Shown in pieces: positions 3,016-19,412 of a DNA stretch of 64,000 nucleotides. The stretch's first letter is position 1, and each line of letters begins with the position of its first letter. The stretch lies in contig NZ_LMJA01000012.1 of NCBI RefSeq assembly GCF_001428895.1, forward strand, positions 406,847 to 470,846. Reading direction: 5' to 3'. This stretch comes from Mycobacterium sp. Root265 (lineage in GTDB: Bacteria > Actinomycetota > Actinomycetes > Mycobacteriales > Mycobacteriaceae). The notes under the pieces were generated by a model. That model worked only from the letters and a program-made list of their open reading frames with translations. It made no database searches and had not been told where the DNA came from. A program made the translations under genes and the position numbers.

Positions 3016-3031
3016 CTGTACGACTGTACAG
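3016..3031. promoter_or_regulatory. Operator site 1 of the CTGTAC-N4-GTACAG regulon
   Basis: Reads CTGTAC, GACT, GTACAG: perfect 6-bp inverted arms around a 4-base spacer. It lies between the divergent SnoaL-like gene (start 2939) and TetR gene (start 3079), so it could control both and allow TetR autoregulation. Seven more copies with the same spacing occur up to 19.4 kb. Confidence 0.75.
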
Positions 3032-3078
3032 CAGTCTCGAGGTGTCACAATACGAACAATCGACGGAACGAGGAGACC

Positions 3079-3723
3079 ATGGCAACGTCGCGGCGAGTGG
3101 GCGCCGAAACGTCCAAGACAAGGGACACGCTGCTCGACTGGGTCGAGAAAATGATGTTGGACGAGGGATATGCGAGCGTCACCTACCGTGCCCTCGCCAC
3201 CAAGGCCGAGATCAGCCCCAGCCTGGTGCAGTACTACTTTCCCAGCCTCGATGACATCTTCCTCGCCGCGATCCGCCGGTACTCCGAACGGAACCTCACC
3301 TTTCTGGTCGACGCGTTGACCAAACGCGCAGACGACCCCCTTCGCGCCGTCTGGGAGTACAGCTGGGACGAGGCGACGGGCGCGCTGATCACCGAATTCA
3401 TGGCACTGGGCAATCACCGCAAGTCGATCCGCAGTGAAATCGCCGCCGTTACCGAAAGCGTGCGTGAGGCACAGCTCGCCGCGCTGGTGGCCAAATACGG
3501 CAAGGATGCCCGCCCCGTCGGCGACCTATCGCTTCCGGCCCTGCAACTACTGATGTCGGGCCTGCCCAAACTGCTCAACTTGGAGGAGAACATCGGCGTG
3601 AAGTCTGCGCACTCCGAGGTCACCACCGCCTTCGAGCGGTTCATCGACGCGGTCGAACCCCCGAAGACCGCAACCCGCAAGCGCAAGACCGCGCCGCGGC
3701 GCCGAACACCGACAGCCGGCTGA
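3079..3723 (+). CDS. TetR family regulator, candidate master regulator of the catabolic island
   Basis: A 214-residue TetR protein. The helix-turn-helix is near the N-terminus (YRALATKAEISPSLVQYYFPS, split by the turn), followed by a ligand-binding domain and a basic C-terminal tail rich in Lys and Arg (ATRKRKTAPRRR) that is not part of the usual fold. AGGAG precedes the ATG at 3079. It is the only regulator gene inside the 1-19 kb island, and one copy of the island-wide operator lies in its own promoter region. From this I infer that it binds CTGTAC-N4-GTACAG and represses the island until a pathway metabolite binds. The family call is certain; the regulon assignment is inference. Confidence 0.9.
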   Translation: MATSRRVGAETSKTRDTLLDWVEKMMLDEGYASVTYRALATKAEISPSLVQYYFPSLDDIFLAAIRRYSERNLTFLVDALTKRADDPLRAVWEYSWDEATGALITEFMALGNHRKSIRSEIAAVTESVREAQLAALVAKYGKDARPVGDLSLPALQLLMSGLPKLLNLEENIGVKSAHSEVTTAFERFIDAVEPPKTATRKRKTAPRRRTPTAG

Positions 3724-3786
3724 CTCGTTCGCGCGATCCGACGGCCATATTGCTGTAGCGACAACGTGTTTGGCGGCTTGGCTGCG

Positions 3787-4942
3787 TCAATTCCGCGGCA
3801 GACCCAGAACCCGCTGCGCGATGATGTTGCGCTGAATCTCCGATGTGCCGCCGGCTATGGTGGCGCCGAAACTGCGTAGGTACCGCGAGAACCAGCTGCT
3901 GGTGTAGCAATCCAGATGAAACGGAGCGAACGCACCGGTCTGTTCCGGGTCGCACAATCCAGCCTGCCCGGACGACATGAGCGCGGCATCTGCAGCGGCC
4001 TGAATAGACTCCGAACCAAGGAGTTTGAGCACCGACATCGACGCAGGGTTGCCGACCCCTCGGTTCGCACGGCTCAATTCAGCCGAGCCCAGCAGTCGCA
4101 GGGCCCAATTGTCCATGACCAGCGTGGCGTAGGCGTCCCGATCCAGCGGGGTCGTCGGCTTCCAGTCCTCGATGAACTCCTCCAACCGTTCGGCGTAGCT
4201 GAGCCACAGCAGTGTTCGTTCATGGCCGAGCGATCCGTTCGCCACTTTCCAGCCCTGGTTGAGCTGCCCGACAAGATTCTCTGCAGGCACCCGGACATCG
4301 CTGAAGAACACCTCGTTGAAATCGACATCGTCGAGGCCGCAGGCAGACGCGAACGGACGCCTGGTCACGCCGTCGAGGTCAGTCGGGATCACCAGCACAC
4401 TGATCCCGGCATGCTTGGCAGCGTCGGGGGCGGTGCGCACCAGGGTGAACAGAACAGCGGCGTCATGCGCGCCCGAGGTCCAGACTTTCTGACCGTTGAC
4501 CACGAAGTGATCACCGTCGAGTTCGGCGCGGGTTCGCAGCGAGGCCAGATCCGAGCCTGCACCGGGTTCACTCATCCCCAGGGCTGCAGTGATCTCTGCC
4601 CGCAGAATCGGAATAGCCCACCGGCGCTGCTGTTCTGGCGTCCCGAATTGGATCAGTGAGGCCGCGATGATGCCGACACCTTGAGGGTTATACGTCTGAT
4701 TCGAAATAGACGTACTGCTGGACCACGCTCGCGTTGCGGCCGCCGAACTCCGGTGGGTATGCGGGCTGGAGCCAGCCGTGATCGAAGAGTGTCCGCTGCC
4801 AGCGCCGCGCCCAATCCGGTATGTGTGCACTGGAAGTCGACCGTTCTGAGGCGGCTTCAGCTTCGGCCGGTTGATGTGCACTGAGGAAGTCGGTGAACTC
4901 TCGACGAAAATGCTCGACATCAGGAGCGAAGTTCAGTTTCAT
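3787..4942 (-). pseudogene. Acyl-CoA dehydrogenase (FadE-like), broken by a small deletion/frameshift
   Basis: The N-terminal 80 residues (ATG at 4942, ending in QQYVYFE) and the remaining roughly 310 residues (from QTYNPQGVG to LGLPRN at 3787) are both clear acyl-CoA dehydrogenase sequence but lie in different frames. The later part carries the flavin and substrate signatures MSEPGAGSDLA and WTSGA, and the C-terminal GGTSEIQRNIIAQR. At about 4693-4700 the first frame meets TAA right after YFESDV. Relatives usually have about eight more residues between YFE and QTYN, so a deletion of roughly 20-26 bases fits. The stop of the upstream short-chain dehydrogenase lies 7 bases before its ATG, placing it last in the leftward operon from 9108. 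If the break is real, this beta-oxidation step must be supplied elsewhere. Confidence 0.85.
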
Positions 4943-4949
4943 CTGCGGC

Positions 4950-5810
4950 TCACCGCATCACGTGCGGATATTGGACATATGGGTGGACGTCGAACATGTC
5001 GCGGTACGAGGGTGGCTGACGATCGTCTTCGTCCACGATGCCGTATTTGACAGCCAGTTCGGCACCGATCAGCGTCCGCCCACTGAGTGCCATCAGCTCG
5101 GGATCCTGGTAGAGCGCCCACATGACGTGTCCGGTCAACTCCGGGGTCTCGGCGGTATCCAGGATGTGTCCGAACTTCTCCGGTTTGCTCGCGATGATGG
5201 CGCGCACCCGGTCAGTGAGCAGGGAACCCATCCAGATCGACACCGCGGCAACACCGAATTCACGGAGGTCGTAGGCCATGTCGGCGGCCATCTTGTCGGT
5301 GCCGGCCTTCGGCACTCCGTACGCCGGGCCGAAGGCGTAGTGCGTGCCGCCCGAGGATGAGGTGAACGCCACCAAGCCTTTGGGCTGGTCGAGCATCAGC
5401 GGTGCGGCATAGACCGTCGCAACGTAGCTGCTGCGCAAGCCAACGCCGAGGGTGTCGATCACGTTCAACGGTTCCTGCCAGAACTTGGTGCGTCCCATCA
5501 TCTCGTCGCGGATGATCGCGGCGTTGTTGACCAGGATGTCAAGTTTTCCGTGTTCCTCGCCGATTTGGTCGAACAGGGCTTTCACCTGTTCATCGTCGGC
5601 GTGATCGACCCGCACGGCGATTCCCTTCCCACCCGCTTCGGTCACCCGCGCCGCCGTCTCATCGATGGTGCCCGACGACGTCGCGCCATCGCCGGTGGTC
5701 CGGCCCGTGACATAGACAGTGCAGCCGTGGCTGCCGAGGGCAGTCGCGATACCCGCCCCCGCTCCGCGGCTTGCACCGGTGACTACGGCTACTACGGTGT
5801 CGTCAGACAT
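4950..5810 (-). CDS. Short-chain dehydrogenase/reductase (DHRS1-like)
   Basis: A 286-residue SDR. The nucleotide-binding motif is TGASRGAGAGIA near residue 11, followed by NNAA and the catalytic Ser in FTSSSGG with Tyr and Lys in YGVPKAG. The C-terminal region is longer than in classical 250-residue SDRs, as in the DHRS1-like subgroup. The ATG at 5810 follows GGGAG; the ATG 33 bases upstream has no ribosome site. It lies between the sulfotransferase and the broken acyl-CoA dehydrogenase in the leftward operon from 9108. It is probably an alcohol or ketone oxidoreductase of the island. Confidence 0.88.
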   Translation of the reverse strand: MSDDTVVAVVTGASRGAGAGIATALGSHGCTVYVTGRTTGDGATSSGTIDETAARVTEAGGKGIAVRVDHADDEQVKALFDQIGEEHGKLDILVNNAAIIRDEMMGRTKFWQEPLNVIDTLGVGLRSSYVATVYAAPLMLDQPKGLVAFTSSSGGTHYAFGPAYGVPKAGTDKMAADMAYDLREFGVAAVSIWMGSLLTDRVRAIIASKPEKFGHILDTAETPELTGHVMWALYQDPELMALSGRTLIGAELAVKYGIVDEDDRQPPSYRDMFDVHPYVQYPHVMR

Positions 5811-5900
5811 GTTGTCTCCCGGTGGTACGTCGTTGACATTCATGTACCCATACGTCTGAACAGCCCGTGCGCGAATGTGGCGCTCCCGCAGGGCCAGACG

Positions 5901-7088
5901 CTATGCGTTGCTGGATTCAAGCTCGATGTCGAACTCCGAAAGGTATTCGGCAAACACCGGCTTGAGTTCAGCCACAGAAAGCCCGTACTGGTCGAGCGAG
6001 TAGTTGTTCAGACCGAATCTGGTCTGCGGGTGATTCGACAGCCACGACCGCATGCGATTCTCGGTATCCACGGCGAAATCGTCTCCGGCCCAATCGTAGA
6101 TGCGCCGCATGACACCCATCGGGTCGCGCATCATCTCCGAGTAGTACATGTGGAAGAACCGGTCGTCACCGATCCGATCACGGGTTCGGAGCGGGCGCTC
6201 GACGTGTTCCTTCATCTGCGCCTTGACGTTGCGGCCGAGGGCTTCACGGTCGATCACATCGGCGTGCTGCACCGTGCTCTTCGGCAGCATGTGCAGATTT
6301 GCAAGCGATCCCGCGGCCTTGTATGGATCACGGTGGGCCCAGATGAGGCGCGCGTCCGGAAACACGTTCAACAGGGTGTCGAGGTACACCGAGTGCGAGG
6401 GCATCTTCAGGCTCCAGGTGCCGGGTACCGTCGACTGCAGAACCTGCAGGTATCGGCGTTGATACCGGTACGTGCTCGTCAGGTCTGCCTCTTCGAACAG
6501 CCATTTCGAGTAGCTCGACGAGGGCATGTACGCGTCCCATGCCAAACCTTTGAAGTCCTGGGTGTGGATGAACATGTCCTCCGTGGGACCGTCGGCATCC
6601 TCCCAGTGCGGGAGCGGCATTTTCGCTTCCTGCACGAACTTCAGAATCGAGGCCTGCTCCTCAAGCATCGCCAGGCATCGCGGATCGGTCCGGTGCGTCT
6701 CAGGTGTCGCCGGCGGGACGGGATTCATGCATTCCCAGTGCAGCAGCGACCGCCGCTCTGCGTCCTGATCGAGCAGGCAGCTGATAACTGTCGTACCGGT
6801 GCGCGGCATCCCGATGATGATGAGCGGCTTCTCGACGGGCGCGTCGAGTACCGACTCGTGTGACTTCACGTAGTCGTGCACTTGCAGGCGGCGGCCAAGC
6901 GCGTCTGCGAACAACCCCATCATGTGCTCTCGGCCGGCGACCGTGAACGCCGGGGACCCGTTGACCTCATCGAGGAGCAGGGCCAGACCCTCACGCCAGC
7001 TGTCGGAGTCAAGGTCGGTCAGACCAGTACGTTGCGCGGCGACCTTCAGCAGGTCGTCGGGAGTCGCGACATCGTCGAACTCACTCAT
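5901..7088 (-). CDS. PAPS-dependent sulfotransferase family protein
   Basis: A 395-residue protein of the bacterial sulfotransferase family. The 5'-phosphosulfate-binding loop GMPRTGTT is at about residue 93, and the 3'-phosphate-binding region WAHRDPYKAAGS follows at about 230. AGGAAAGG precedes the ATG at 7088. Such enzymes transfer sulfate from PAPS to an alcohol, though several mycobacterial members of this broad family have no known acceptor. It shares an operon with an alkylsulfatase-like hydrolase at 7864-9108, so sulfate-ester chemistry on the pathway substrate is plausible. The gene is intact and of normal length. Confidence 0.85.
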   Translation of the reverse strand: MSEFDDVATPDDLLKVAAQRTGLTDLDSDSWREGLALLLDEVNGSPAFTVAGREHMMGLFADALGRRLQVHDYVKSHESVLDAPVEKPLIIIGMPRTGTTVISCLLDQDAERRSLLHWECMNPVPPATPETHRTDPRCLAMLEEQASILKFVQEAKMPLPHWEDADGPTEDMFIHTQDFKGLAWDAYMPSSSYSKWLFEEADLTSTYRYQRRYLQVLQSTVPGTWSLKMPSHSVYLDTLLNVFPDARLIWAHRDPYKAAGSLANLHMLPKSTVQHADVIDREALGRNVKAQMKEHVERPLRTRDRIGDDRFFHMYYSEMMRDPMGVMRRIYDWAGDDFAVDTENRMRSWLSNHPQTRFGLNNYSLDQYGLSVAELKPVFAEYLSEFDIELESSNA

Positions 7089-7120
7089 GTGTATTGCCTT
7101 TCCTCACGTTTCGGGTGATG

Positions 7121-7867
7121 TCAGACGGTCAGATATCCGCCGTCGACGGCAAGGGTGGTGCCAGTGATGTACCGAGCTGCGTCGGCACTGAGGAAGAGCA
7201 CTGCCCCGGATACTTCGTCGGGCATGCCCATTCGGGCCATGGGCGTGTGGCGCATCTCGGGTTCGAGCAGTTCGGGGATATCGAGCACGGGGTGAGTGGT
7301 CCTGGTATCGATCAGGCCGGGCGCCACCGCGTTGACGCGGATTCCGTCGCCGACCCAACGACGGGCAAGGTTCTTGGTGAGCGCAACCAGGCCGGCCTTG
7401 GCCGAGCTGTAGGCGGGTACTGCGATGGCCGAGACGAACGCCGACATCGACACGATGGTGACGACGCTGGCCCCACCGGACGCCTTGCTCGCCTTGAGGT
7501 TTTCGTGACATGCCATGGTCAGGCGCATCGGTGCGAACATGTTCACTTCGATCGAACCGGCGTAACCCTCCGGGTCCCACTCGTCCTTGCCGCCGGCATA
7601 TGGCGCGCCGGCGTTGTTGATCAGCACGTCGAGGCCATCGAGGGATGCGGCAAGCGCATCGACGGACCCCAGGTCCGACAGCTGGCACTGCCGATAGTCG
7701 AAGGCGCTGAGGTCGTCGTCGTAGGCACCGGCATCAGCGCGAGTGCCGGTGATCACCACGGCGGCCCCTGCCCGAGCGAAGTCCGTGGCGATGGCATTGC
7801 CGATCCCGCTGGTTCCGCCTGTGACCAGCACCCGCGAGCCGGAGAAATCGAAGTCAACGGTATTCAC
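7121..7867 (-). CDS. Classical short-chain dehydrogenase/reductase
   Basis: A 248-residue classical SDR with TGGTSGIG near residue 16, NNAG at about 87, the catalytic Ser in IVSMSAF and Tyr/Lys in YSSAKAG, and the C-terminal GGYLTV. Its ATG overlaps the stop of the metallo-hydrolase gene by four bases (ATGA), so the two are translationally coupled. It probably oxidises or reduces a hydroxyl group in the same pathway as the hydrolase and sulfotransferase. The specific substrate cannot be deduced. Confidence 0.92.
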   Translation of the reverse strand: MNTVDFDFSGSRVLVTGGTSGIGNAIATDFARAGAAVVITGTRADAGAYDDDLSAFDYRQCQLSDLGSVDALAASLDGLDVLINNAGAPYAGGKDEWDPEGYAGSIEVNMFAPMRLTMACHENLKASKASGGASVVTIVSMSAFVSAIAVPAYSSAKAGLVALTKNLARRWVGDGIRVNAVAPGLIDTRTTHPVLDIPELLEPEMRHTPMARMGMPDEVSGAVLFLSADAARYITGTTLAVDGGYLTV

Positions 7868-9108
7868 TTGGCGACCTTCAACTCATCGATCGATTTGATC
7901 AGCCATGCTCGCTCCCAGAAGTTCTCGGCATCCGCGAGCAGTGCCTCGTGGGCATCGATCGCCACCTCGCGGGCGCCCGCATCGGTGGGTTCCACGGCGA
8001 GCACAATGTCCGTCAGATGCAGTGCGCGCACTGGATCCCGCTGGGCGACATGCTTTCGGGCAGTGTCGACGAGCGCCTGAGCGCCTGCGACCGCGACCAG
8101 GTCCGCTGCCGCGGCGCTGGGTGGTACGGAATAGAGTTCCGTCGTCGAGCGGTGGTGGAACCACCCGGCATACATTTCCCAGACAGCCCGCACATTCCAC
8201 AGGGTTCGTCCGTACCCCTCACCGATATCCAGGTCATCGGGTATGCGCACCTCCCGCATGGCGGTGTGCACATCGGCGCCCGTGTTCATGAATTCGACGG
8301 TCTGGTCGTGGACGGCCTGCATGGCGTCGCGCATTGCCGTGACTTCTTCGGCGATTCGGTCGCGGCCCTCGATGGGACCGAAGTGGCCGGTGATCAGGCG
8401 TTTGGGCGCGAAATCCAACACAGTATCGAGCGATTCGATGTACTGAAGGGGATCGCGGTACCGATCGCCGCGAATCGTCATGAGGTTGGGGACGTGACCG
8501 AACAGCGGCCCGAACAGATTTCCGGTGAACAGGACGTCGTCGTCGGGCAGCGATACGACGATCGAGTCCGTGGTTTCTCCGCCAGGCGTCCAGGCTAGCT
8601 CGAACCTGCGTCCCCCGATCTCCATCTCGTAACGGTCGGCGAAGGTCGTAGTCGGCTCCGGAAACGAGAAGTCGATGGTCGACGAATCGACCGTTTGGAA
8701 GAACTCCATGAAAGTCTCGGAGATCTTCTTGAAGGCGAAGGACGTCTTGGATGCGCGCACGGGCATCAAGCGGTCATTGTCATCGCGCCAGTATCGGTAG
8801 TTCGCGTGCATGATCACGTCTGTGCCGGCGTCTCGCAGCGCGTTGACGCCACCCCAATGATCGGCATGCCCCTGCGTCACGAATATCGCGGGGGTTGGGC
8901 CGGCAAGGTGTTCGAACGCCTGTTTCCGCATCGGCGCCTCGAACACCAGCCCGGTGTTGATCATCACCCGTCCGGCATCGGTCGTAATGGCGTAGGCGTT
9001 CGACACGCCCTCAGACATCCAGATGTCATCGCCCAGTGACGTCGCACGGTCACCCGTCGCCGCGGCCAGGTCGGCAGCGCCTGGGCGTTCCCGATGAATT
9101 GCGACCAT
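7864..9108 (-). CDS. Metallo-beta-lactamase-fold hydrolase with alkylsulfatase dimerisation domain
   Basis: A 414-residue protein: an N-terminal metallo-beta-lactamase fold (residues about 25-240) and a C-terminal alkylsulfatase-type dimerisation domain (YGRTLWNVRAVWEMYAGWF and following). Alkylsulfatases of this type cleave sulfate from primary or secondary alkyl sulfates using two zinc ions. The metal motif reads TQGHADH at 78-84, so the first His of HxHxDH is replaced by Gln79; the later ligands (GHFGP, GGETTDS region) look present. This may mark a subfamily rather than an inactive enzyme. GGAGG precedes the ATG at 9108. It is the first gene of the leftward operon behind the perfect operator at 9144-9159. 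Confidence 0.85.
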   Translation of the reverse strand: MVAIHRERPGAADLAAATGDRATSLGDDIWMSEGVSNAYAITTDAGRVMINTGLVFEAPMRKQAFEHLAGPTPAIFVTQGHADHWGGVNALRDAGTDVIMHANYRYWRDDNDRLMPVRASKTSFAFKKISETFMEFFQTVDSSTIDFSFPEPTTTFADRYEMEIGGRRFELAWTPGGETTDSIVVSLPDDDVLFTGNLFGPLFGHVPNLMTIRGDRYRDPLQYIESLDTVLDFAPKRLITGHFGPIEGRDRIAEEVTAMRDAMQAVHDQTVEFMNTGADVHTAMREVRIPDDLDIGEGYGRTLWNVRAVWEMYAGWFHHRSTTELYSVPPSAAAADLVAVAGAQALVDTARKHVAQRDPVRALHLTDIVLAVEPTDAGAREVAIDAHEALLADAENFWERAWLIKSIDELKVAK

Positions 9109-9143
9109 CTCATGCCCTCCGTTGTCCCGTACAGTCGAAGATG

Positions 9144-9244: not shown

Positions 9245-10014
9245 ATGACCCTCCGTGGACTTCAAGGCAAAGTGGCCGTAATCATCGGCGGCGCTTCCGG
9301 ACTGGGCGCGGCGACCGCGGTTCGACTCGGCCAAGAGGGTTGCCGCGTTGTCGTTGGTGACATTGCTTCGGATGGTGCCCAGCGGACCGCCGATGCAATC
9401 AGGACCAACGGTGGAAACGCGTCGGCGCTCCCGTGCGACCTCTCAGATCCGGCGTCGATCAAGTCCCTCTTCGTCGCGGCCAGGGACACCTTCGGTGGAG
9501 TCGACGCCGTCTTCAACGTGGGTGCGGACATGAGTACGCTCGCCGCCGACACGGACGTCGTGGACATCGATCTGGACGTGTGGGATCGAGTCATGAGCGT
9601 CAACCTGCGCGGCTACGTCAGCGCCATGAAGCACGCCATCCCGGTGATGCTCGAGGGTGGCGGCGGAGCGATCGTGAACATGTCGTCCACGGCCGCCTTC
9701 CAGGGGGAATCGACGCGACCTGCCTACGCCACCGCCAAGGCCGGGATCGGCGCCCTCACCCGCCACGTGGCGTCACGCTGGGGTAAGGAGGCCGTTCGGT
9801 GCAACGCCGTCGCCCCCGGCTTCACCGCCACGGACACAATCAGATCCGCACCGCAGTGGCCGGCGCTCGAGTCAGCCGCACTGCAGCGATGCGCAGTCCG
9901 CGCGTCGGCGAACCCGACGACGTCGCATCGCTGGTGGCATTTCTGCTTTCGGACGAAGGGTCGTGGATCAACGGCCAGGTGATCAGCGTTGACGGTGGAA
10001 CCGTACTGCGCTGA
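9245..10014 (+). pseudogene. Short-chain dehydrogenase/reductase with a one-base frameshift near 9898
   Basis: From the ATG at 9245 (AGGAG upstream) the frame encodes a good SDR: GGASGLG, a Ser in VNMSSTA and YATAKAG. At about residue 218 the homology leaves the frame. The true C-terminus ([17 protein letters not shown] to SVDGGTVLR, stop at 10014) continues in another frame. Adding a single C in the run at 9898-9899 restores [10 protein letters not shown] and gives a 256-residue protein of normal length. As written, the product ends at 9982 with an unrelated tail. This is either a recent mutation or a base-calling error in a short C run. It is divergent from the metallo-hydrolase operon and shares its operator. 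Confidence 0.85.
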
Positions 10015-11440: not shown

Positions 11441-11685
11441 CGCTCGCCTTCCGCCGGCGCGCCGTGGGCGGCGCGCGCCCGGCTCAGATGTTCGATCATC
11501 ACCGTGATCGCCTGTTCGGGGCACGACTGCGCGGCTTCTCGCACAACCGCCTGATGTTCCTCGGGGACCTCGTCATGGATGGGATGTGCGTGCCCGTCAA
11601 CATCATCCAATTCGAATGACTCCGGCGCGATCATCGCGCACAACGTATGACCCTGGCAGCGAGCGGCATCCACACTTACGCGCAT
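11437..11685 (-). CDS. Small [3Fe-4S]-type ferredoxin
   Basis: An 82-residue ferredoxin with Cys10, Cys16 and Cys55 (CQGHTLC and SCPEQAI). The second Cys position is His13, the hallmark of the mycobacterial CxxHxxC ferredoxins that pair with P450s. GGAGG precedes the ATG at 11685. Its stop overlaps the P450 start by four bases. It probably carries single electrons from a ferredoxin reductase, not encoded in this window, to the P450 next door. Confidence 0.93.
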   Translation of the reverse strand: MRVSVDAARCQGHTLCAMIAPESFELDDVDGHAHPIHDEVPEEHQAVVREAAQSCPEQAITVMIEHLSRARAAHGAPAEGER

Positions 11686-12484: not shown

Positions 12485-12519
12485 TGCACATCCTTGGGTC
12501 TTATCGGCACATCACATTG

Positions 12520-12535
12520 CTGTACGAATGTATAG
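12520..12535. promoter_or_regulatory. Operator site 3
   Basis: Reads CTGTAC, GAAT, GTATAG. It lies upstream of the leftward SDR-ferredoxin-P450 operon (start 12484). On the minus strand the variant half gives TATACA, which could double as the -10 hexamer, so a bound repressor would block the polymerase directly. Confidence 0.7.
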
Positions 12536-12576: not shown

Positions 12577-13347
12577 CTACACGCCGGCGGGGCCGGGCGC
12601 ACCGTGCATGTACAGGGTCTGGCCAGAGCAGAAGCTGGACGCATCGGAGGCGAAAAATAGGACGCCGTAGCCAATCTCATCCGGCTCCCCCAATCTGCCG
12701 AGTCCGTTGGACATGGCGATCGCCTCGGGATCCAGGCCGTATCTGGCGGCGTCGTCGGTGAGGGTGGCCGCGCGAACCGCCCCGACCGCGATCGCGTTCA
12801 CACGAACACCCTTCTTGGCCCACGCCGCCGCCATCGAACCGGTCATCGCATTGACGGCCGCCTTGGCCGCGCTATAGGGAGCGGCTTGGGGCATTGCCAG
12901 CAGGCTTGCACCGGACGAGATGTTGACGATGGCGCCCTTACCCTGGGCGAACATCGGCTTGGCAGCAGCCTTGGACAGGTGCCAGACGGAACCGAAGTTC
13001 AGTGCCATGGTTCGCTCGAAGTCATCGTCGGGCCACTTCATAATCGATTTGGTTTCCGCGCCGCCGGCGCAATTGACGAGAATGTCCAACTTCCCGAATT
13101 CCGCCATTGTGGTGTCGACGAGCTCGCGGCACGCCTCCGCCGACGTCACATCGCACGAGGTGGACAGCGCGCGACACCCCAGCTCGCGCACGTCCTTGGC
13201 CGTCGACTCCAGCGGTGCAGAACGGCGCCCGGCCAGCACGACGTCGGCGCCCCGTTCGGCGAGTACCAACGCAGAGGCGCGGCCGATCCCGGTGCCGCCA
13301 CCGGTTATCAGGGCCACACGGCCATCGAGGGCAAACCGATCGTCCAC
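12577..13347 (-). CDS. Classical short-chain dehydrogenase/reductase
   Basis: A 256-residue SDR with TGGGTGIG, a Ser in VNISSGA and Tyr/Lys in YSAAKAA. I start it at the GTG at 13347, where AGGAG lies seven bases upstream; the open frame continues far upstream but that part is antisense to the P450. It is transcribed leftward, divergent from the P450 at 13534, and has its own operator at 13403-13418. Its role is presumably another alcohol or keto step in the island. Confidence 0.88.
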   Translation of the reverse strand: MDDRFALDGRVALITGGGTGIGRASALVLAERGADVVLAGRRSAPLESTAKDVRELGCRALSTSCDVTSAEACRELVDTTMAEFGKLDILVNCAGGAETKSIMKWPDDDFERTMALNFGSVWHLSKAAAKPMFAQGKGAIVNISSGASLLAMPQAAPYSAAKAAVNAMTGSMAAAWAKKGVRVNAIAVGAVRAATLTDDAARYGLDPEAIAMSNGLGRLGEPDEIGYGVLFFASDASSFCSGQTLYMHGAPGPAGV

Positions 13348-13402
13348 TACATCACTCCTGAGCCTCGTGGCGGCAACGATTACCCGGTACAGCCGCCGAT
13401 TG

Positions 13403-13418
13403 TTGTACGAGCGTATAG
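13403..13418. promoter_or_regulatory. Operator site 4
   Basis: Reads TTGTAC, GAGC, GTATAG. It is about 56 bases upstream of the leftward SDR start at 13347. A second copy at 13474-13489 serves the divergent P450, so this intergenic region carries one site per promoter. Confidence 0.7.
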
Positions 13419-13473
13419 CATCAGCCACGGTGCGGATCGTGGAAACCAGTCGCTTGCCGCGAAAACGTGCGAG

Positions 13474-13489
13474 TTGTACTGTCGTATAG
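13474..13489. promoter_or_regulatory. Operator site 5
   Basis: Reads TTGTAC, TGTC, GTATAG. It lies just upstream of the rightward P450. The right half contains TATAGC at 13485-13490, a plausible -10 hexamer whose start point would fall near the ATG at 13498. Confidence 0.7.
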
Positions 13490-13533
13490 CATCTCTCATG
13501 CTTCTGCCCCATTCCCTTGCCGAGGAGGCTGCG

Positions 13534-14721
13534 TTGAGCGACTTGTACTACGACCCCTGGGACTTCGACATCGACCTGGATCCGTACCCGACCTACAAGA
13601 GGCTCCGGGACGAAATGCCGGTCTACTACAACGAAAAACACGACTTCTGGGGAGTGAGTCGTTACGCCGACGTGGACGCGGCGCTCAAGGACACCACCCG
13701 GCTCAGCTCCGCAAAGGGTGACATTCTCGAGGTGGTGATGACCGATCCCGTCATGCCACCCGGAATTTTCATCAACGAAGACCCGCCACTGCACACCATC
13801 CACCGGGCAATCGTGTCGCGGGCCTTCACCCCCAAAAAGATGCGTGCCATCGAGGACAAGATTCGTAATTTCTGCGTCGCATGCCTGGATCCGCTGGTCG
13901 GTGGTGACCGGTTCGACTTCGTCGAGGATCTCGGCGCTGAACTCCCGATGCGCACCATCGGCATGCTGGCCGGCATTCCTGACTCCGAGCAACCCGCGGT
14001 GCGCGAGCACGCCAATCAGGTGCTGCGCAATGAGGCCGGTAAGCCGATGGAGATCAAGAAGGACCGGTACTTCACCGGAGAGATGTTTGGCGAGTATGTC
14101 GCATGGCGCGAGAAGAATCCCTCCGACGACCTGATCACCGAATTGCTCAACGTCGAGTTCGAAGACGAGACCGGCACCACCCGCAAGTTGCACAAGCAGG
14201 AACTCATCGTGTTCTTGGCTGTTGTCGCCGGGGCCGGAGTCGAGACGACCGGCCGGCTGTTCGGCTGGATGGGCAAGGTCCTGGCCGAGCACCCCGACCA
14301 ACGCGCCGAGCTGGCGGCCGACCCATCAAAGATCCCGCTGGCGATCGAGGAACTGCTGCGTTTCGAACCGCCGGGGCCGCACGTCGCCCGCTACATCGCC
14401 ACCGACGACGTCAGTTTCCAAGACCAAGTGGTGCCCGCGGGCAGTCCACTCCTGATCATGCTGGCCTCGGCCAACCGCGATGAGCGCCACTTCGATGACC
14501 CCGATCGGTTCGACATTCGCCGCAAGCCGGGCGGCCACCTCACGTTCGGACGTGGCGCTCACTTCTGCGTCGGCTCTCCGCTGGCACGGCTGGAGGGTCG
14601 GGTGGCTCTCGAAGAAGTGCTCAAGCGCTGGCCCACATGGGAAGTCGACATGTCCAAGGCCACCCGCTCGCGCACGTCCACCGTGCGTGGGTGGGACACC
14701 ATGCCGGCGATTGTCGGATAA
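13534..14721 (+). CDS. Cytochrome P450
   Basis: A P450 of 395 residues if begun at the TTG at 13534, which has GAGGAG six bases upstream and gives the family-like opening MSDLYYDPWDF. An ATG at 13498 would add 12 residues and could be a leaderless start close behind operator site 5. Key motifs are AGVETT (about 234-239, I helix), EELLR (Glu273, Arg276) and the heme Cys345 in LTFGRGAHFCVGS. It is followed two bases later by a mycofactocin-coupled dehydrogenase, suggesting that the hydroxyl it installs is oxidised by that enzyme. It has no ferredoxin of its own; the one at 11437 could serve both P450s. Confidence 0.9.
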   Translation: MSDLYYDPWDFDIDLDPYPTYKRLRDEMPVYYNEKHDFWGVSRYADVDAALKDTTRLSSAKGDILEVVMTDPVMPPGIFINEDPPLHTIHRAIVSRAFTPKKMRAIEDKIRNFCVACLDPLVGGDRFDFVEDLGAELPMRTIGMLAGIPDSEQPAVREHANQVLRNEAGKPMEIKKDRYFTGEMFGEYVAWREKNPSDDLITELLNVEFEDETGTTRKLHKQELIVFLAVVAGAGVETTGRLFGWMGKVLAEHPDQRAELAADPSKIPLAIEELLRFEPPGPHVARYIATDDVSFQDQVVPAGSPLLIMLASANRDERHFDDPDRFDIRRKPGGHLTFGRGAHFCVGSPLARLEGRVALEEVLKRWPTWEVDMSKATRSRTSTVRGWDTMPAIVG

Positions 14722-14723
14722 TC

Positions 14724-15545
14724 ATGAGTGACTCACCACGCCGGGTCGCTGTCATCACCGGTGCGGCGCGAGGACAGGGTCGCAGCCACGCCGTTGCGCT
14801 GGCCGCCCAGGGTATCGACATCATCGCGATCGACCGCTGCGCCGACATCGACTCCATCCCCTACCCGTTGGCCACCAACGCCGACCTCGACGAGACCGCG
14901 GACCTGATTCGCGGTGCGGGTGCACGGGCGGTCACTGCGGTCGCCGACGTTCGCGACCTTGGCGGCCTGCAAGCCGCCGTCGACCGTGGCGTCAGCGTTC
15001 TCGGCAACGTCAGCATCGTCATCGCCAATGCGGGCGTGGTGGGAATGGGGCTGACAGACCCTCTCGACCAAGACGTGTATCGCGACATCGTCGAGACAAA
15101 CCTATCCGGGGTCTGGCACACGATCGCCACGACCGCCCCGTCCATGATCCGGGGCGGCACCGGAGGATCCATGGTGCTGATCAGTTCCATGCAGGGATTG
15201 GTCGGCCGCGGTGGCGATGGAAGCGCTGCGACCTTCGCCTACGCTGCGTCCAAGCACGGCGTTGTCGGGCTGATGCGATCCGCGTCGTACGCCTACGCAT
15301 CTCACAACATCCGGGTGAATACTGTGCACCCCACTGGTGTTGCGACCCCGATGATCTTCAACCAGCACATGGCCGATATGTTCGCCGCGAACCCGGAAGG
15401 CAGCGCCATGACCGGCAACCTGTTGCCGGTGCCATATGTCGAGCCGCAAGATGTCACCAACGCCGTGCTGTTCTTGATCAGCGACAGCGCCCGCTACGTC
15501 ACCGGAATGACCATGCCCGTGGACGCGGGCTTCGCGGTGATGTGA
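14724..15545 (+). CDS. Mycofactocin-coupled SDR family oxidoreductase
   Basis: A 273-residue SDR with TGAARGQGRSHAV, then an extended segment (DRCADIDSIPYPLAT) typical of the mycofactocin-coupled subfamily, which keeps its NAD tightly bound and passes electrons to the peptide-derived cofactor mycofactocin. The catalytic Ser is in LISSMQG and Tyr/Lys in YAASKHG. The ATG at 14724 begins two bases after the P450 stop, so the pair is coupled. This links the island to alcohol oxidation through mycofactocin and supports a mycobacterial host. Mycofactocin biosynthesis genes are not in this window. Confidence 0.88.
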   Translation: MSDSPRRVAVITGAARGQGRSHAVALAAQGIDIIAIDRCADIDSIPYPLATNADLDETADLIRGAGARAVTAVADVRDLGGLQAAVDRGVSVLGNVSIVIANAGVVGMGLTDPLDQDVYRDIVETNLSGVWHTIATTAPSMIRGGTGGSMVLISSMQGLVGRGGDGSAATFAYAASKHGVVGLMRSASYAYASHNIRVNTVHPTGVATPMIFNQHMADMFAANPEGSAMTGNLLPVPYVEPQDVTNAVLFLISDSARYVTGMTMPVDAGFAVM

Positions 15546-15560
15546 TCGACCGCTTCGCAC

Positions 15561-17162
15561 TCACCGCGCATTGCGGATCAAATCGGCTGCCCGCCAGGCA
15601 ATCGCCATGATCGGTCCGTTCAGGTTTCCCGCAACCATCGTGGGAAGAACCGAGCAGTCGACCACCCGAAGCCCATTGACGCCCCGCACCCGCAACTGGT
15701 CATCGACCACATCGTCATCGTTCGGCCCCATGGCCAGGCTGCCCGCTGCGTGATAGCCGCAGTAGCCGCCGGCGAGCACGCTGTCGACCAACTCGTCCTC
15801 ACTCTGCACACCGGCGCCGGGGAATGTCTCGTGGCTGATGCGCTCGGCGATGGGCGACTGCTCGAAGATGGTGCGCATCATGCGCAGCATGTTCGCGGTG
15901 GCGGCGCGGTCGTAGTCGGTGTCCAGGTAGTTCGGGTCGATCCGAAGCGCCGTATCCGGCGCGCTGGAGACGATCTCGATGGAACCCTGCGAGGTCGGGC
16001 GCAAGACCATCCCCAGGCATGAGACACCGGCCTGTCGTTCGATGGCCACCGGCTCTCCGACGTTGTAGGGCGGGATGGTCCACGGGCCCATCATCAGTTG
16101 GGCGTCGGGACGCTCGGCATCGGGCTGCACTTTGGCGAAGCCCACGATGTCGAAGGACGGCGCAGCCAATGGCCCCTTGCGGGTGGCAAGATACTTCGCG
16201 CTGGTCATGGCCTGCCCGAGATTGGTGGCCAACTGACGGTTGTACCCGAGATCATCGCGAAGCTGTAAACGCAGCGTCGCGCAACGGTGTTCGAGTAAAC
16301 CCCGGCCCACTTTGTCGCGTTCGAGGTAGATGCGTACACCGGCGGCGTCCAGCACGCTGCGCGGACCGATACCCGACATCTGCAGCAGTCGTGGGCTGTT
16401 GAGGCTGCCGAGGGCAACGATGACCTCTCGGGATGCGCGCACCGTTTCGCGACCACCCTTGTGCAGAGCTAGGACTCCGACGGCTCGGCCTGCTTCCAAG
16501 ACGAGCCGCTCGACGACCGTCCCTGTTCGCACGGTGAGGTTCCGGCGGCTGCGCGCGGGCTTCAGGAATGCGGTCGCGGCACTGATGCGCCGGCCGTTCT
16601 TGATGGTGGAGGTGGCATAGCCGATGCGTTCGCCATCATGCTCGTTGATGTCCTCGACCACCTGCAGACCAATCGCGGCACCGGATGCCAACATCTCCCG
16701 GCACAGCGGGTCCGGGTCCCTGGGGACCGAGATGTGCAACGGCCCGCCCGTCCCGCGCGTGCGCGAGGCCCCGAACTCGTTGCCCTCGAAAGCCTTGAAG
16801 ATGGGCAGCATGTCATCCCATCCCCAGCCCTTGTTGCCAAGGCCCTCCATGATGTCCCAGTCGGCCCTGGTTCCGCGGTTGTAGATCATCCCGTTGATCG
16901 AGCTCGATCCGCCGAGCACTTTGCCGCGCATCCATTGTTCGGTGTGGCGGTTGGGGCCCAACGGTGTCGTCGAGTAGTGCCACATGTGCTTCTCGCTGTC
17001 GAACAGTTTGCCCGCGCCCTTGGGCACCATGAACAGCGGATTGAGATCGGACCCACCGGCCTCCAACAGCAGCACAGACACGGCCGGATCCTCAGACAAT
17101 CGGTTGGCCAGCACGCAGCCTGCTGAACCCGCTCCCGCAATGATGTAGTCGTACGTCGGCAT
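15561..17162 (-). CDS. GMC family FAD-dependent alcohol oxidoreductase
   Basis: A 533-residue glucose-methanol-choline oxidoreductase. The FAD-binding motif GAGSAGCVLANRLSEDP opens the protein and is followed by LLLEAGG. The first GMC signature is around GKVLGGSSSINGM. The C-terminal active-site region has the His in YHAAGSLAMG and the Asn in AGNLNGP. AGGAG precedes the ATG at 17162. It oxidises a primary or secondary alcohol with FAD and is transcribed leftward, convergent with the mycofactocin SDR gene. Operator site 6 lies about 40 bases upstream. Confidence 0.92.
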   Translation of the reverse strand: MPTYDYIIAGAGSAGCVLANRLSEDPAVSVLLLEAGGSDLNPLFMVPKGAGKLFDSEKHMWHYSTTPLGPNRHTEQWMRGKVLGGSSSINGMIYNRGTRADWDIMEGLGNKGWGWDDMLPIFKAFEGNEFGASRTRGTGGPLHISVPRDPDPLCREMLASGAAIGLQVVEDINEHDGERIGYATSTIKNGRRISAATAFLKPARSRRNLTVRTGTVVERLVLEAGRAVGVLALHKGGRETVRASREVIVALGSLNSPRLLQMSGIGPRSVLDAAGVRIYLERDKVGRGLLEHRCATLRLQLRDDLGYNRQLATNLGQAMTSAKYLATRKGPLAAPSFDIVGFAKVQPDAERPDAQLMMGPWTIPPYNVGEPVAIERQAGVSCLGMVLRPTSQGSIEIVSSAPDTALRIDPNYLDTDYDRAATANMLRMMRTIFEQSPIAERISHETFPGAGVQSEDELVDSVLAGGYCGYHAAGSLAMGPNDDDVVDDQLRVRGVNGLRVVDCSVLPTMVAGNLNGPIMAIAWRAADLIRNAR

Positions 17163-17202
17163 CCGGCACTTCTCCTACTGATCGAGCGAAGCAATCCCCG
17201 CG

Positions 17203-17218
17203 CCGTACGAACGTACAG
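17203..17218. promoter_or_regulatory. Operator site 6
   Basis: Reads CCGTAC, GAAC, GTACAG, with one mismatch in the left arm. It is upstream of the leftward GMC oxidoreductase gene (start 17162), 44 bases from site 7 centre to centre. Confidence 0.7.
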
Positions 17219-17246
17219 CATCTGCGTGTCCTGCGTCACCATTGCG

Positions 17247-17262
17247 CTGTACGCATGTACAG
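17247..17262. promoter_or_regulatory. Operator site 7
   Basis: Reads CTGTAC, GCAT, GTACAG, and the arms extend to GCTGTAC/GTACAGC. It is 22 bases before the ATG at 17285. A TAGCGT hexamer at 17273-17278 would place transcription start at or near that ATG, so the SDR mRNA may be leaderless and the operator would cover the -35 region. Confidence 0.75.
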
Positions 17263-17284
17263 CTAACGGTGATAGCGTGCAGAC

Positions 17285-18097
17285 ATGACCCCGACTTCGG
17301 AAACGCTCGGCACCGCACCCGGCCGCGGACGCCTGCGCGGCCGTCGAATCGTCGTTATCGGCGCCGGATCTCAACCCTCCCCGGACCCCGAAGTGACCAT
17401 CGGGAACGGTCGTGCGATCGCAGTGCTGTGTGCGCGCGAAGGTGCGGCCGTGGCGTGCGTCGACAGGGACAAGGAGGCCGCCGACGAAACGGCGCGCCTG
17501 TGCGCCGACGAGGGCGGCGAAACTGCCACCATCATCGCGGATGTGCGCGATGCCGACCAGTGCGAACGACTGGTGCACCAGGCCCACACCCAGCTCGGGG
17601 GACTCGACGGGTTGGTCGCCAACGTCGGTTACGGCGCCGGCGGCGGGCTCGCCGACACCACGCCAGAGATCTGGGACGACGTGTTCGCGGTCAACGTGCG
17701 CTCACACTTTCTGACCGCCCGCGCCGCGATGCCGCTGCTCGCCGATGACAGCGCGATCGTGTTCATCGGATCAGCGGCGGGCATCAGAGCGGGCACCAGA
17801 CTACCGGCGTACGACTCATCGAAGACCGCCCTGAACGGACTCTGCCGGCATGTGGCACTCGAAGGCGCCCCCCGCGGCATTCGCGCCAACCACGTGATTC
17901 CAGGCGCGGTGGACACTCCCCTGGGCCGCGTCGGCGATCAGCTCGTCCACATGCGGACGAAGATCAAATGGCCGCTGGGACGCCAAGCCTCGGCGTGGGA
18001 CATTGCCTACGCCACCGTGTTCATGCTCAGCGGAGAATCCAGCTACATCACGGCCCAATCGCTTGTCGTCGATGGCGGCAAGACTCAGTTCGGCTGA
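17285..18097 (+). CDS. Short-chain dehydrogenase/reductase
   Basis: A 270-residue SDR. The glycine motif is unusual: VIGAGSQPSPDPEVTIGNG, so the TGxxxGxG loop is lengthened by several residues before GNGRAIA. The catalytic Ser is in IGSAAGI and Tyr/Lys in YDSSKTA; the C-terminus is LVVDGGKTQFG. No ribosome site precedes the ATG at 17285, in keeping with a leaderless start. It lies 24 bases before the nitroreductase gene in a rightward pair controlled by operator site 7. Confidence 0.85.
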   Translation: MTPTSETLGTAPGRGRLRGRRIVVIGAGSQPSPDPEVTIGNGRAIAVLCAREGAAVACVDRDKEAADETARLCADEGGETATIIADVRDADQCERLVHQAHTQLGGLDGLVANVGYGAGGGLADTTPEIWDDVFAVNVRSHFLTARAAMPLLADDSAIVFIGSAAGIRAGTRLPAYDSSKTALNGLCRHVALEGAPRGIRANHVIPGAVDTPLGRVGDQLVHMRTKIKWPLGRQASAWDIAYATVFMLSGESSYITAQSLVVDGGKTQFG

Positions 18098-18121
18098 TCG
18101 CGACCATCGTAGAGAGAGCGA

Positions 18122-18763
18122 ATGCCAATGGAGATATCAAGTCTCAGCTTCGACGAGGTTCTGTCCACCACCCGGGCAGTCCGCCTGCGCCTGGACTTCG
18201 AACGAACCGTGCCGCGCGAGGTGCTGATGGATTGCCTCAGACTGGCCGTGCAAGCACCGAGCGCATCCGACTCACAGGACTGGGAGTGGATATTCGTCGA
18301 CGATCCAGCAAAGAAAGCCGCGATCGCCGATGTGTACCGGGCCAACCGAGCAGCAATCGACGCACACTCCGCTTCGGTCGACACAAACGAAACACCCACT
18401 CGGATAGCCAGATCCGGTTCTCACCTCGTCGATCACATGCAGGATGCGCCCTTTCTCCTGATCCCGTGCCAGAAGGGCCGCGCCGAGAGGGGGCCCGCCG
18501 GTATGGGCGCCACCTTCTGGGCATCGGTGATCCCGGCTACGTGGAGCTTCTGTCTGGCACTGCGCTCCCGCGGGCTGGGCACCTGCTGGACCACGCTGCA
18601 CCTGTTCGGGGGCGGCGAGAAGAAGGTTGCCGAGATCCTGGGTGTCCCCTACGACGAGTACAGCCAAGTCGGCCTGTTCCCCATCGCATACACCAAAGGC
18701 ACCGACTTCAAGCCAGCCGCCAGATTGCCGCCTGAGCACGTATCCCATTGGAACAGTTGGTGA
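18122..18763 (+). CDS. Nitroreductase family protein
   Basis: A 213-residue FMN-dependent nitroreductase-fold protein. It begins SFDEVLSTTRAVRLRLDF, has the FMN-binding QAPSASDSQDW segment at about residue 42-52, and ends with KKVAEILGVPYDEYSQVGLFPIAYTKG split over two strands. These enzymes reduce nitro groups, quinones or enones with NAD(P)H. A second in-frame ATG six bases later is possible. It is downstream of the SDR in the operon behind operator site 7. The remnant at 677-857 is from the same family. Confidence 0.88.
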   Translation: MPMEISSLSFDEVLSTTRAVRLRLDFERTVPREVLMDCLRLAVQAPSASDSQDWEWIFVDDPAKKAAIADVYRANRAAIDAHSASVDTNETPTRIARSGSHLVDHMQDAPFLLIPCQKGRAERGPAGMGATFWASVIPATWSFCLALRSRGLGTCWTTLHLFGGGEKKVAEILGVPYDEYSQVGLFPIAYTKGTDFKPAARLPPEHVSHWNSW

Positions 18764-18795
18764 AAGACCTCGACTGGCGCGCTGGAGGTTGAGGG

Positions 18796-19320
18796 TCACG
18801 GCTCGTCGGTGACGTCCTCGATATTCATGTCCTTGGCACCCTTCCCGATGACGAAGAATGTGCCCGGCTTGAGCACGAAGTCAGTCGCATTGCCGCAGAT
18901 CGTGGCAGTTACAGGCGAATTGGCCCACTTGGAACCGGTACCGATGGTTCCTGACACATTCGCTTCGACCGGGTGGTCAACAGGGCAGGCCGGGCTGGAT
19001 ACGTTGACGATCGTGCTGGCGATGCCGACCAGGTCCATGCTCTTGCCGTTGACGAAAGGCAACCCCCAAGTGATCATTTCGGTACCGGGCCCCGTACGAT
19101 TGGTTTGCCCGGAACCGGTCGTGCCGTTTTCCCTGACGCAGCCCGTCAGGTAGTGGGGCCAAACAGTATTGGGGCCGTAAAAGTCTGAACACTGAATTCG
19201 GACTCCTTTCGGCACCGGCTTCGGACCAGCAGAGGCTGGCGCAGCCAACGCCGATCCCAGAAGCCCCAAGACCGCGACGGCGATGACGGACCGCCGACCC
19301 AACGTGACACCATGTTCCAT
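18796..19320 (-). CDS. Secreted protein with Sec signal peptide, unknown function
   Basis: A 174-residue protein. The N-terminus (RR, then a hydrophobic run VIAVAVLGLLGSALAAPASA) is a good signal peptide with cleavage expected after ASA near residue 30. The mature part is about 145 residues with four cysteines (about 42, 58, 111 and 140), which could form two disulfides outside the cytoplasm. I recognise no catalytic motif. GAAGGGG precedes the ATG at 19320. It sits at the edge of the island and has operator site 8 about 77 bases upstream, so it is probably expressed with the enzymes and might bind or capture the substrate outside the cell. Confidence 0.75.
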   Translation of the reverse strand: MEHGVTLGRRSVIAVAVLGLLGSALAAPASAGPKPVPKGVRIQCSDFYGPNTVWPHYLTGCVRENGTTGSGQTNRTGPGTEMITWGLPFVNGKSMDLVGIASTIVNVSSPACPVDHPVEANVSGTIGTGSKWANSPVTATICGNATDFVLKPGTFFVIGKGAKDMNIEDVTDEP

Positions 19321-19396
19321 TTCACTGCCCCTTCTCGACGCGGAGAACGCGCTCGGTCGCTGAGCTGAGCATCTCGGCCAGCTCCGCCCGACCACG

Positions 19397-19412
19397 TTGT
19401 ACATATGTACAG
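19397..19412. promoter_or_regulatory. Operator site 8
   Basis: Reads TTGTAC, ATAT, GTACAG. It is the last copy seen on the right side of the island, upstream of the secreted-protein gene (start 19320). Confidence 0.72.

What the first reader, a model, noticed from the sequence alone, without database searches (positions are those of the whole stretch)
3016..19412. One 16-bp operator repeated eight times defines a 16-kb catabolic regulon
Seen: (C/T)(C/T)GTAC-N4-GTA(C/T)AG occurs at 3016, 9144, 12520, 13403, 13474, 17203, 17247 and 19397, always with a 4-base spacer and always upstream of a gene start. The divergent regions at 13.4 and 17.2 kb have one site per promoter. Several sites carry GTATAG, which overlaps a possible -10. 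Outside 3-19.4 kb I found no copy. Inference: the TetR at 3079-3723, whose own promoter has a site, controls at least eight transcription units including two P450s, a GMC enzyme and a secreted protein. I know no described mycobacterial regulator with this motif (KstR and KstR2 motifs differ).
Basis: partly seen in the sequence, partly recalled or inferred. Interest (0 to 1): 0.82.

Follow-up and report, generated by a model that had tools for sequence, protein, structure and literature searches.

The report
TetR operator array over catabolic cluster
A short palindromic DNA site sits before every inferred operon of a 19-kb gene cluster in a mycobacterium-type genome, and comparison with dozens of relatives suggests that the cluster's own TetR-type switch protein binds it to control the breakdown of some still unknown, probably oily ring-shaped compound.

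Summary
All eight sites are present and are the only exact matches in the 6.67-Mb genome; shuffles of the window give none. By my gene starts all lie between genes, and they cover every inferred operon from about 0.07 to 19.4 kb. The motif is a palindrome, about GCTRTAC-RNNY-GTAYAGC.

The link to the TetR at 3079-3723 is strong but computational. Of 148 genus genomes, 33 have a close orthologue and all 33 carry the pattern (mean 4.8 hits); of the 115 others 45 do (mean 0.5, near background). In 65 named loci, including Nocardia, Williamsia and Rhodococcus, the 4-base spacer gives 208 sites; spacers of 2, 3, 5 and 6 give 1-3 each. Sites follow the same genes through rearrangements and onto a plasmid.

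It is not the Rv0767c regulator of "motif X": that locus lies elsewhere in the genome and has a different palindrome.

Most likely an autoregulated local TetR repressor of a P450/SDR/mycofactocin catabolic cluster. Ligand and substrate are unknown; binding was not tested. I found no published description in the listings searched. New member of a known kind.

The parts
71..778 (-). carboxymuconolactone decarboxylase-family protein, third gene of the left operon
   Evidence: Pfam PF02627 41.3 bits, cut-off 23
862..2346 (-). aldehyde dehydrogenase (related to, but below the cut-off of, the Rv0768 model)
   Evidence: TIGR04284 584 bits, cut-off 775
2376..2939 (-). SnoaL-like protein, first gene of the left operon
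   Evidence: PF13577 76.9 bits; a site lies under 220 bp upstream in 27 of 30 sequences with a homologue of 55% identity or more
3016..3031 (.). operator CTGTACGACTGTACAG between SnoaL (-) and TetR (+)
3079..3723 (+). TetR-family regulator, proposed to bind all eight operators
   Evidence: PF00440 26.9 bits, cut-off 24; close orthologues in 33 of 148 genus genomes, own included
3787..4920 (-). acyl-CoA dehydrogenase reading frame; N-terminal fifth does not align with relatives (possible broken gene or sequencing error)
4950..5843 (-). SDR oxidoreductase (SDR1), conserved in many of the related clusters
5901..7088 (-). sulfotransferase-family protein
   Evidence: PF13469 158 bits
7121..7867 (-). 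SDR oxidoreductase (SDR2)
7864..9111 (-). metallo-beta-lactamase-fold hydrolase with alkyl-sulfatase dimerisation domain, first gene of an inferred five-gene operon
   Evidence: PF14863 66.7 bits, PF00753 42.3 bits
9144..9159 (.). operator CTGTACGTACGTACAG between the MBL operon (-) and SDR3 (+)
9245..9982 (+). SDR oxidoreductase (SDR3) reading frame; its C-terminal end does not look like the family
   Evidence: family matches end near residue 200-225 of 245
10085..11440 (-). cytochrome P450, nearest solved structure P450cin
   Evidence: phmmer 1.7e-49 to P450cin chains
11437..11685 (-). small ferredoxin next to the P450 (start chosen by eye)
   Evidence: translation; PF13459 57.4 bits, cut-off 22.4
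11741..12484 (-). SDR oxidoreductase (SDR4), first gene of the inferred SDR4-ferredoxin-P450 operon
   Evidence: a site lies upstream in 35 of 40 homologues
12520..12535 (.). operator CTGTACGAATGTATAG upstream of SDR4
12577..13350 (-). SDR oxidoreductase (SDR5)
   Evidence: a site lies upstream in 21 of 42 homologues
13403..13418 (.). operator TTGTACGAGCGTATAG, SDR5 side of the divergent region
13474..13489 (.). operator TTGTACTGTCGTATAG, P450 side of the divergent region
13513..14721 (+). second cytochrome P450 (a start at about 13534, after GAGGAGG, is also plausible)
   Evidence: a site lies upstream in 33 of 43 homologues
14721..15545 (+). mycofactocin-coupled SDR
   Evidence: TIGR03971 338 bits, cut-off 300
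15561..17162 (-). GMC-family oxidoreductase
   Evidence: NF002550 437 bits, cut-off 605; MftG model 275 bits, cut-off 387
17203..17218 (.). operator CCGTACGAACGTACAG, GMC side
17247..17262 (.). operator CTGTACGCATGTACAG, SDR7 side
17285..18097 (+). SDR oxidoreductase (SDR7)
18122..18763 (+). nitroreductase-family protein
   Evidence: PF00881 79 bits
18796..19320 (-). small protein with a signal-peptide-like start (by eye), no Pfam family; homologues beside sites in L047 and L049
19397..19412 (.). operator TTGTACATATGTACAG upstream of the secreted-looking protein; right edge of the regulon

Best explanation
The eight sites are operators of the TetR-family protein encoded at 3079-3723. Its dimer binds the palindrome GCTRTAC-RNNY-GTAYAGC, probably as a repressor, just upstream of the start codons of ten transcription units: its own gene, SnoaL-ALDH-CMD, MBL-SDR2-sulfotransferase-SDR1-ACAD, SDR3, SDR4-ferredoxin-P450, SDR5, P450-mycofactocin SDR, GMC, SDR7-nitroreductase and the secreted-looking protein. 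A substrate or pathway intermediate, most likely a hydrophobic cyclic compound such as a terpenoid or steroid-like molecule, would release it and turn on the oxidative catabolic cluster together with its own gene. Shown by computation: the sites, their confinement to this cluster, their palindromy, their conservation with the TetR across genera, and their position before gene starts. Inferred: operon limits, direct binding by this TetR, repression rather than activation, induction by a ligand, and the substrate class.
For: Sites exclusive to this cluster genome-wide. Of 148 genus genomes, 33 have a TetR orthologue (59% identity or more, E 1.3e-74 or better; the next matches are at 49% and below). 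All 33 carry the pattern (158 strand hits, mean 4.79), while 45 of the other 115 do (60 hits, mean 0.52, at most 3 per genome); the reversed control averages 0.70 and 0.80. In all 65 named loci, the 4-base spacer gives 208 sites and spacers of 2, 3, 5 and 6 give 2, 1, 1 and 3; 61 of 65 loci hold at least one site. Columns not used to find the sites are also conserved and symmetric: inner R/Y 98%, outer G/C 70% in 207 distinct sites. A site lies within 250 bp upstream of the TetR in 43 of 64 loci, or within 250 bp on either side in 53 of 64, against 59 of 3,339 windows more than 3 kb away. Sites follow the operon-leading genes although gene order differs: SnoaL 27 of 30, SDR4 35 of 40, P450b 33 of 43, but the operon-internal P450cin-like gene 1 of 20 (homologues of 55% identity or more, aligned from their first 25 residues). 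On plasmid pJCM13574 all 11 sites of the 40.6-kb stretch are intergenic (84% of it is coding) and 9 of 11 lie within 165 bp of an annotated start. The HTH segment SLVQYYF is invariant in 18 aligned members down to 44% identity (partly selected for by the search).
Against: No binding, expression or ligand data. L081, L099 and L100 have a TetR relative (66%, 44% and 47%) but no site in the stretch held. In L050, L053, L057, L074, L086, L092, L095 and L098 no site lies within 250 bp of the TetR although the locus has sites elsewhere. SDR5 has a site in only 21 of 42 relatives and SDR1 in 9 of 37; 69 of 216 sites had no start of a window-gene homologue within 220 bp, and 1 of 216 lies inside such a homologue. 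On the plasmid 2 of 11 sites are not near an annotated start. Many of the related loci are closely related species, so counts are not independent. The sigma-70 scan found no promoter at the sites.
Confidence: 0.8

Rival explanations
1. The sites are bound by the TetR, but it acts as an activator or as a dual regulator rather than as a simple repressor.
For: The sites vary in distance from the start codons and some promoters carry two sites; TetR-family activators are known (recalled).
Against: The window sites lie about 20-85 bp from start codons, which fits blocking RNA polymerase. Autoregulation through a palindrome before the regulator's own gene is described for KstR and proposed for EdcR, both repressors (PMC8700777, discussion part 1).
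Confidence: 0.12
2. Another DNA-binding protein reads the sites, for instance the second TetR at 19629-20258 or a protein encoded elsewhere.
For: Co-occurrence cannot by itself prove which protein binds; a second TetR gene stands at the right edge.
Against: In the printed tiling (tblastn E 1e-15) no TetR2 homologue appears in any of the 65 related loci, and TetR2 has its own different palindrome upstream (AAGTGATC-N8-GATCACTT). Genomes without the 3079 orthologue show only background hits.
Confidence: 0.05
3. This is the Rv0767c regulon described as 'motif X' in Mycobacterium sp. VKM Ac-1817D.
For: Same TetR family; that regulon too holds P450s, aldehyde dehydrogenases and SDRs and a self-site (PMC6593523, section 8 read).
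Against: The genome has a separate Rv0768-type aldehyde dehydrogenase over its curated cut-off (G000:C13, 931 bits), beside a TetR and P450-like genes (read by eye from the translations) as at Rv0764c-Rv0768 (gene names recalled). That TetR shares only 27% over 141 residues with the window TetR, and its upstream region has TGGACA-TG-TGTCCA and no copy of the present motif. The motif X logo itself is a figure that I could not see.
Confidence: 0.02
4. The repeats are chance or a non-regulatory repeat or promoter motif of the genome.
For: None found; single scattered hits occur at background rate in other genomes.
Against: 0 expected and 8 found in the window; spacer control 208 against 1-3; all eight intergenic.
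Confidence: 0.01

Closest known systems
Rv0767c / G155_05115 'motif X' regulon (PMC6593523; PMC4482099 Table 2)
   Same: mycobacterial TetR with a palindromic operator before P450, SDR and aldehyde dehydrogenase operons, including its own gene
   Different: different protein (27% over 141 residues) at a different locus; the palindrome before the Rv0767c-type gene of this genome is TGGACA-TG-TGTCCA; motif X is reported beside 14 operons, this motif is confined to one cluster here
EdcR, oestrogen-dependent TetR repressor of Caenibius tardaugens (PMC8700777)
   Same: TetR repressor of a P450-containing catabolic cluster; proposed operator TnnCnnTACnAnTnGTAnnGnnA shares the half-site CnnTAC/GTAnnG
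   Different: spacer of 5 instead of 4; an alphaproteobacterium (recalled); I could not obtain the EdcR protein to compare. Three sphingomonad plasmid relatives of the window TetR have 38-40% identity; the two fetched have no copy of the motif
KstR and KstR2 (cholesterol catabolism)
   Same: TetR repressors of catabolic clusters with palindromic operators in mycobacteria (PMC4482099 passages)
   Different: operator sequences differ (recalled; the finding says the same); their regulons are steroid catabolism genes
Local TetR-operator pairs in mycobacteria in general (Balhana 2015, PMC4482099, passages seen)
   Same: TetR next to metabolic genes, palindromic intergenic motif
   Different: those motifs were sought for 30 TetRs conserved across species and in the region to the divergent gene; this regulator is patchy (33 of 148 genomes) and has sites at every inferred operon of a 19-kb cluster

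Membership tests
TetR family of transcriptional regulators | N-terminal TetR HTH domain | tested here: met
   PF00440 26.9 bits over cut-off 24
TetR family of transcriptional regulators | all-helical C-terminal ligand-binding domain, dimer | not testable with these tools
TetR family of transcriptional regulators | palindromic operator near the regulator's own gene | tested here: met
   site at 3016-3031; within 250 bp upstream in 43 of 64 relatives; binding itself not tested
Rv0767c / motif X regulon | orthology to Rv0767c (beside Rv0768-type aldehyde dehydrogenase and CYP123/CYP51) | tested here: not met
   that locus is G000:C13; 27% identity over 141 residues; the CYP names are recalled
Rv0767c / motif X regulon | same operator | tested here: inconclusive
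   different palindrome before the Rv0767c-type gene of this genome, but the published logo was not seen
EdcR-type regulators | operator TnnCnnTACnAnTnGTAnnGnnA (5-base spacer) | tested here: not met
   a 5-base spacer gives 1 hit in 65 loci against 208 for 4
EdcR-type regulators | induction by oestradiol or oestrone | not testable with these tools
   needs experiment
KstR / KstR2 | KstR or KstR2 operator and sterol catabolic genes | not tested
   judged different from recalled motifs only

The most novel reading that the evidence does not exclude
A self-contained, horizontally moving catabolic regulon: the TetR, its palindromic operator and a reshuffling set of P450, SDR, mycofactocin-coupled and (on one plasmid) lipid-storage genes travel together across mycobacteria, Nocardia, Williamsia and Rhodococcus. 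The TetR would sense a new ligand class (a polycyclic terpenoid or oestrogen-like steroid), with the operator evolutionarily or convergently related to that of EdcR.
Probability: 0.2. Interest if true: 0.62.

Novelty: new member of a known kind. Interest (0 to 1): 0.5.

Why it matters
It turns an uncharacterised TetR and 19 neighbouring genes into one testable unit: a single proposed repressor, a defined operator, ten promoters and conserved relatives in many environmental actinobacteria. The operator gives a ready reporter to find the inducer, and so the substrate of the two P450s and the mycofactocin-coupled dehydrogenase. It also separates this regulator from the Rv0767c, KstR and KstR2 regulons with which P450 and SDR clusters in mycobacteria are easily confused.

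Tried and rejected
Rejected: chance; identity with Rv0767c; the C27 paralogue (40% identity, beside a P450-like gene and mce-like genes, named by eye) using the same motif (no copy in L104; no exact palindrome with arms of 6 or more and a gap of 0-8 in its intergenic region); two Sphingobium relatives using it (no copy in L122 or L123). The -10 overlap idea: the sigma-70 scan gave nothing at the sites; by eye only some sites continue as TAGCAT, so I leave it open.

Led nowhere: literature searches for the operator as text and for a matching regulator or cluster brought no description of this motif or regulon. I saw titles and abstract starts of the listed papers only, and several lists were capped (20 of 105, 15 of 186, 12 of 147, 12 of 484, 15 of 45). 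They cover only the open-access library named by the tool, and logos in figures cannot be searched. PccD (PMC11596240, passages seen) acts on pccA and pccB. The solved-structure search for the TetR gave only weak matches, mostly in the HTH region.

Limits: the list of hits was cut off, so clustering beside the TetR was read from the listed part; the per-genome counts are complete. The 65 loci include close relatives. L103 is not an orthologue (36% over 67 residues) and was dropped from the 64-locus count. The homologue counts include the window and drop homologues under 55% identity or not aligned from their first 25 residues. P450b positions rest on the 13513 start.
Full report
WHAT IS THERE. 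The eight sites are at the stated places and are the only exact matches in the whole 6.67-Mb genome; the reversed control pattern has none. With one mismatch allowed 6 scattered further places appear, against 13 for the control pattern. The symmetric form YYRTACN4GTAYRR finds the same eight in the window with 0.03 expected. All eight are intergenic by my gene starts. By operon: 3016 lies between SnoaL (start 2939, -) and TetR (3079, +); 9144 between the MBL gene (9111, -) and SDR3 (9245, +); 12520 before SDR4 (12484, -); 13403 and 13474 between SDR5 (13350, -) and the second P450 (13513 or about 13534, +); 17203 and 17247 between GMC (17162, -) and SDR7 (17285, +); 19397 before the secreted-looking protein (19320, -). 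That covers ten inferred transcription units. The genes right of 19.4 kb that I looked at (a second TetR at 19629, a glycosyltransferase-like protein, a hydrolase-like protein by eye) have no site.

GENES. Families were assigned by NCBIfam and Pfam: carboxymuconolactone decarboxylase, aldehyde dehydrogenase, SnoaL-like, TetR, acyl-CoA dehydrogenase, seven SDRs of which one (14721-15545) passes the mycofactocin-coupled SDR model (338 bits, cut-off 300), sulfotransferase, metallo-beta-lactamase-fold protein with an alkyl-sulfatase dimerisation domain, ferredoxin, two P450s, a GMC enzyme, a nitroreductase and a small protein without a Pfam family; 20 genes in all. The first P450 (10085-11440) is nearest to P450cin among solved structures (1.7e-49); the second has no close solved relative (best CYP125MRCA, 6e-59, with many other P450s close behind). 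The set fits oxidation of a hydrophobic, probably cyclic molecule; that is inference.

IS IT THIS TetR? Of 148 genus genomes, 118 have some match to the TetR at E 1e-10, but only 33 (own included) have a close orthologue (59% identity or more); the next matches are at 49% and below. The reversed control averages 0.70 and 0.80 hits. In the listed part the hits of orthologue genomes lie mostly within about 25 kb of the TetR, with some single outliers; hits in other genomes are scattered.

PHYLOGENETIC FOOTPRINT. A search of named genomes gave 65 loci: many Mycobacterium and Mycolicibacterium species, and Rhodococcus, Nocardia, Williamsia, Blastococcus and Frankia or Parafrankia. One (L103) is not an orthologue. 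All 65 were scanned: 208 sites with the 4-base spacer, and 2, 1, 1 and 3 with spacers of 2, 3, 5 and 6. L081, L099, L100 and L103 have none. A site lies within 250 bp upstream of the TetR in 43 of 64 loci, within 250 bp on either side in 53 of 64, and in 59 of 3,339 windows more than 3 kb away in the same loci. Gene order differs strongly between loci, yet sites keep to the first genes of operons: SnoaL 27 of 30, SDR4 35 of 40, P450b 33 of 43, TetR 43 of 59, SDR5 21 of 42, SDR1 9 of 37, and P450cin-like 1 of 20, as expected for an internal gene (window included, homologues of 55% identity or more aligned from their first 25 residues). Of 216 sites (8 of the window included) 147 have the start of a window-gene homologue within 220 bp, 69 do not, and 1 lies inside such a homologue. 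On the Mycolicibacterium madagascariense plasmid pJCM13574, 11 sites lie in 40.6 kb, all intergenic although 84% is coding, and 9 of 11 lie within 165 bp of an annotated start, among them a wax ester/triacylglycerol synthase gene. So regulator and regulon also travel on a plasmid.

THE MOTIF. From 207 distinct sites, symmetrised, the consensus is (T)GCTRTAC-RNNY-GTAYAGC(A). The inner R/Y (98%) and outer G/C (70%) columns were not part of the search pattern, so they are independent support for a palindrome of 18 to 20 bp. The HTH segment SLVQYYF is invariant in 18 aligned members from 79% down to 44% identity, with the caveat that one of the two search peptides contained it. The paralogue on contig C27 has PQLVHYYF and the Sphingobium relative PSLVHYYF, and neither neighbourhood has the motif.

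COMPARISON WITH KNOWN SYSTEMS. The nearest printed case that I saw in mycobacteria is motif X of Mycobacterium sp. VKM Ac-1817D, assigned to the Rv0767c orthologue (PMC6593523, section 8 read in full; passages), with the Rv0767c motif listed in PMC4482099 (passages; logo not visible). In the present genome the Rv0768-type aldehyde dehydrogenase is at G000:C13 (931 bits, over cut-off). The TetR beside it, followed by P450-like genes (by eye), is only 27% identical to the window TetR over 141 residues and has TGGACA-TG-TGTCCA upstream. The window regulator is therefore a different one. The half-site CnnTAC/GTAnnG recurs in the proposed operator of the oestrogen-responsive repressor EdcR (PMC8700777, passages, discussion part 1), but with a 5-base spacer; this is a weak hint only.

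MECHANISM. Most likely the TetR dimer represses all ten units, itself included, and a substrate-derived ligand releases it. Repression, ligand and substrate are not shown. Confidence 0.8 for the TetR as the binder and local repressor; about 0.12 for a different sign of regulation.

VERDICT. Observation confirmed, interpretation supported. It is a new member of a known kind (autoregulated TetR catabolic regulon), unusually clean and well conserved. No description of it appeared in the listings, several of which were capped.

Noticed in passing
window 3787-4920 (-): Acyl-CoA dehydrogenase reading frame whose N-terminal fifth does not align with relatives (coverage about 80% in L044, L051 and L058); a broken gene or a sequencing error. 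Described only.
   Followed up: partly
window 9245-9982 (+): SDR3 family matches end near residue 200-225 of 245 and the end reads unlike an SDR; possibly a broken frame. Described only.
   Followed up: no
window 19569-19592: A second TetR (19629-20258) has its own different palindrome upstream, AAGTGATC-N8-GATCACTT, before a glycosyltransferase-like gene; probably a separate small regulatory unit.
   Followed up: partly
L121 (pJCM13574) 13404-13419: A site lies 51 bp before a wax ester/triacylglycerol synthase gene followed by a lysophospholipid acyltransferase gene, so the regulon in that species may reach lipid storage genes.
   Followed up: partly
L104 10232-10903 (G000:C27): A 40% paralogue of the TetR lies divergent from a P450-like gene and near mce-like genes (by eye; identity); it has neither this motif nor a clear palindrome.
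   Followed up: partly
L087 and L088 (Williamsia faeni): Two TetR relatives (56% and 58%) in one strain's records, each with the site 75-76 bp upstream; cross-talk or duplication of the regulon.
   Followed up: no
L066-L071 around 13570-17680: Promoters with two operators only about 18-20 bp apart, and degenerate second copies beside many sites (by eye), suggesting cooperative binding.
   Followed up: no
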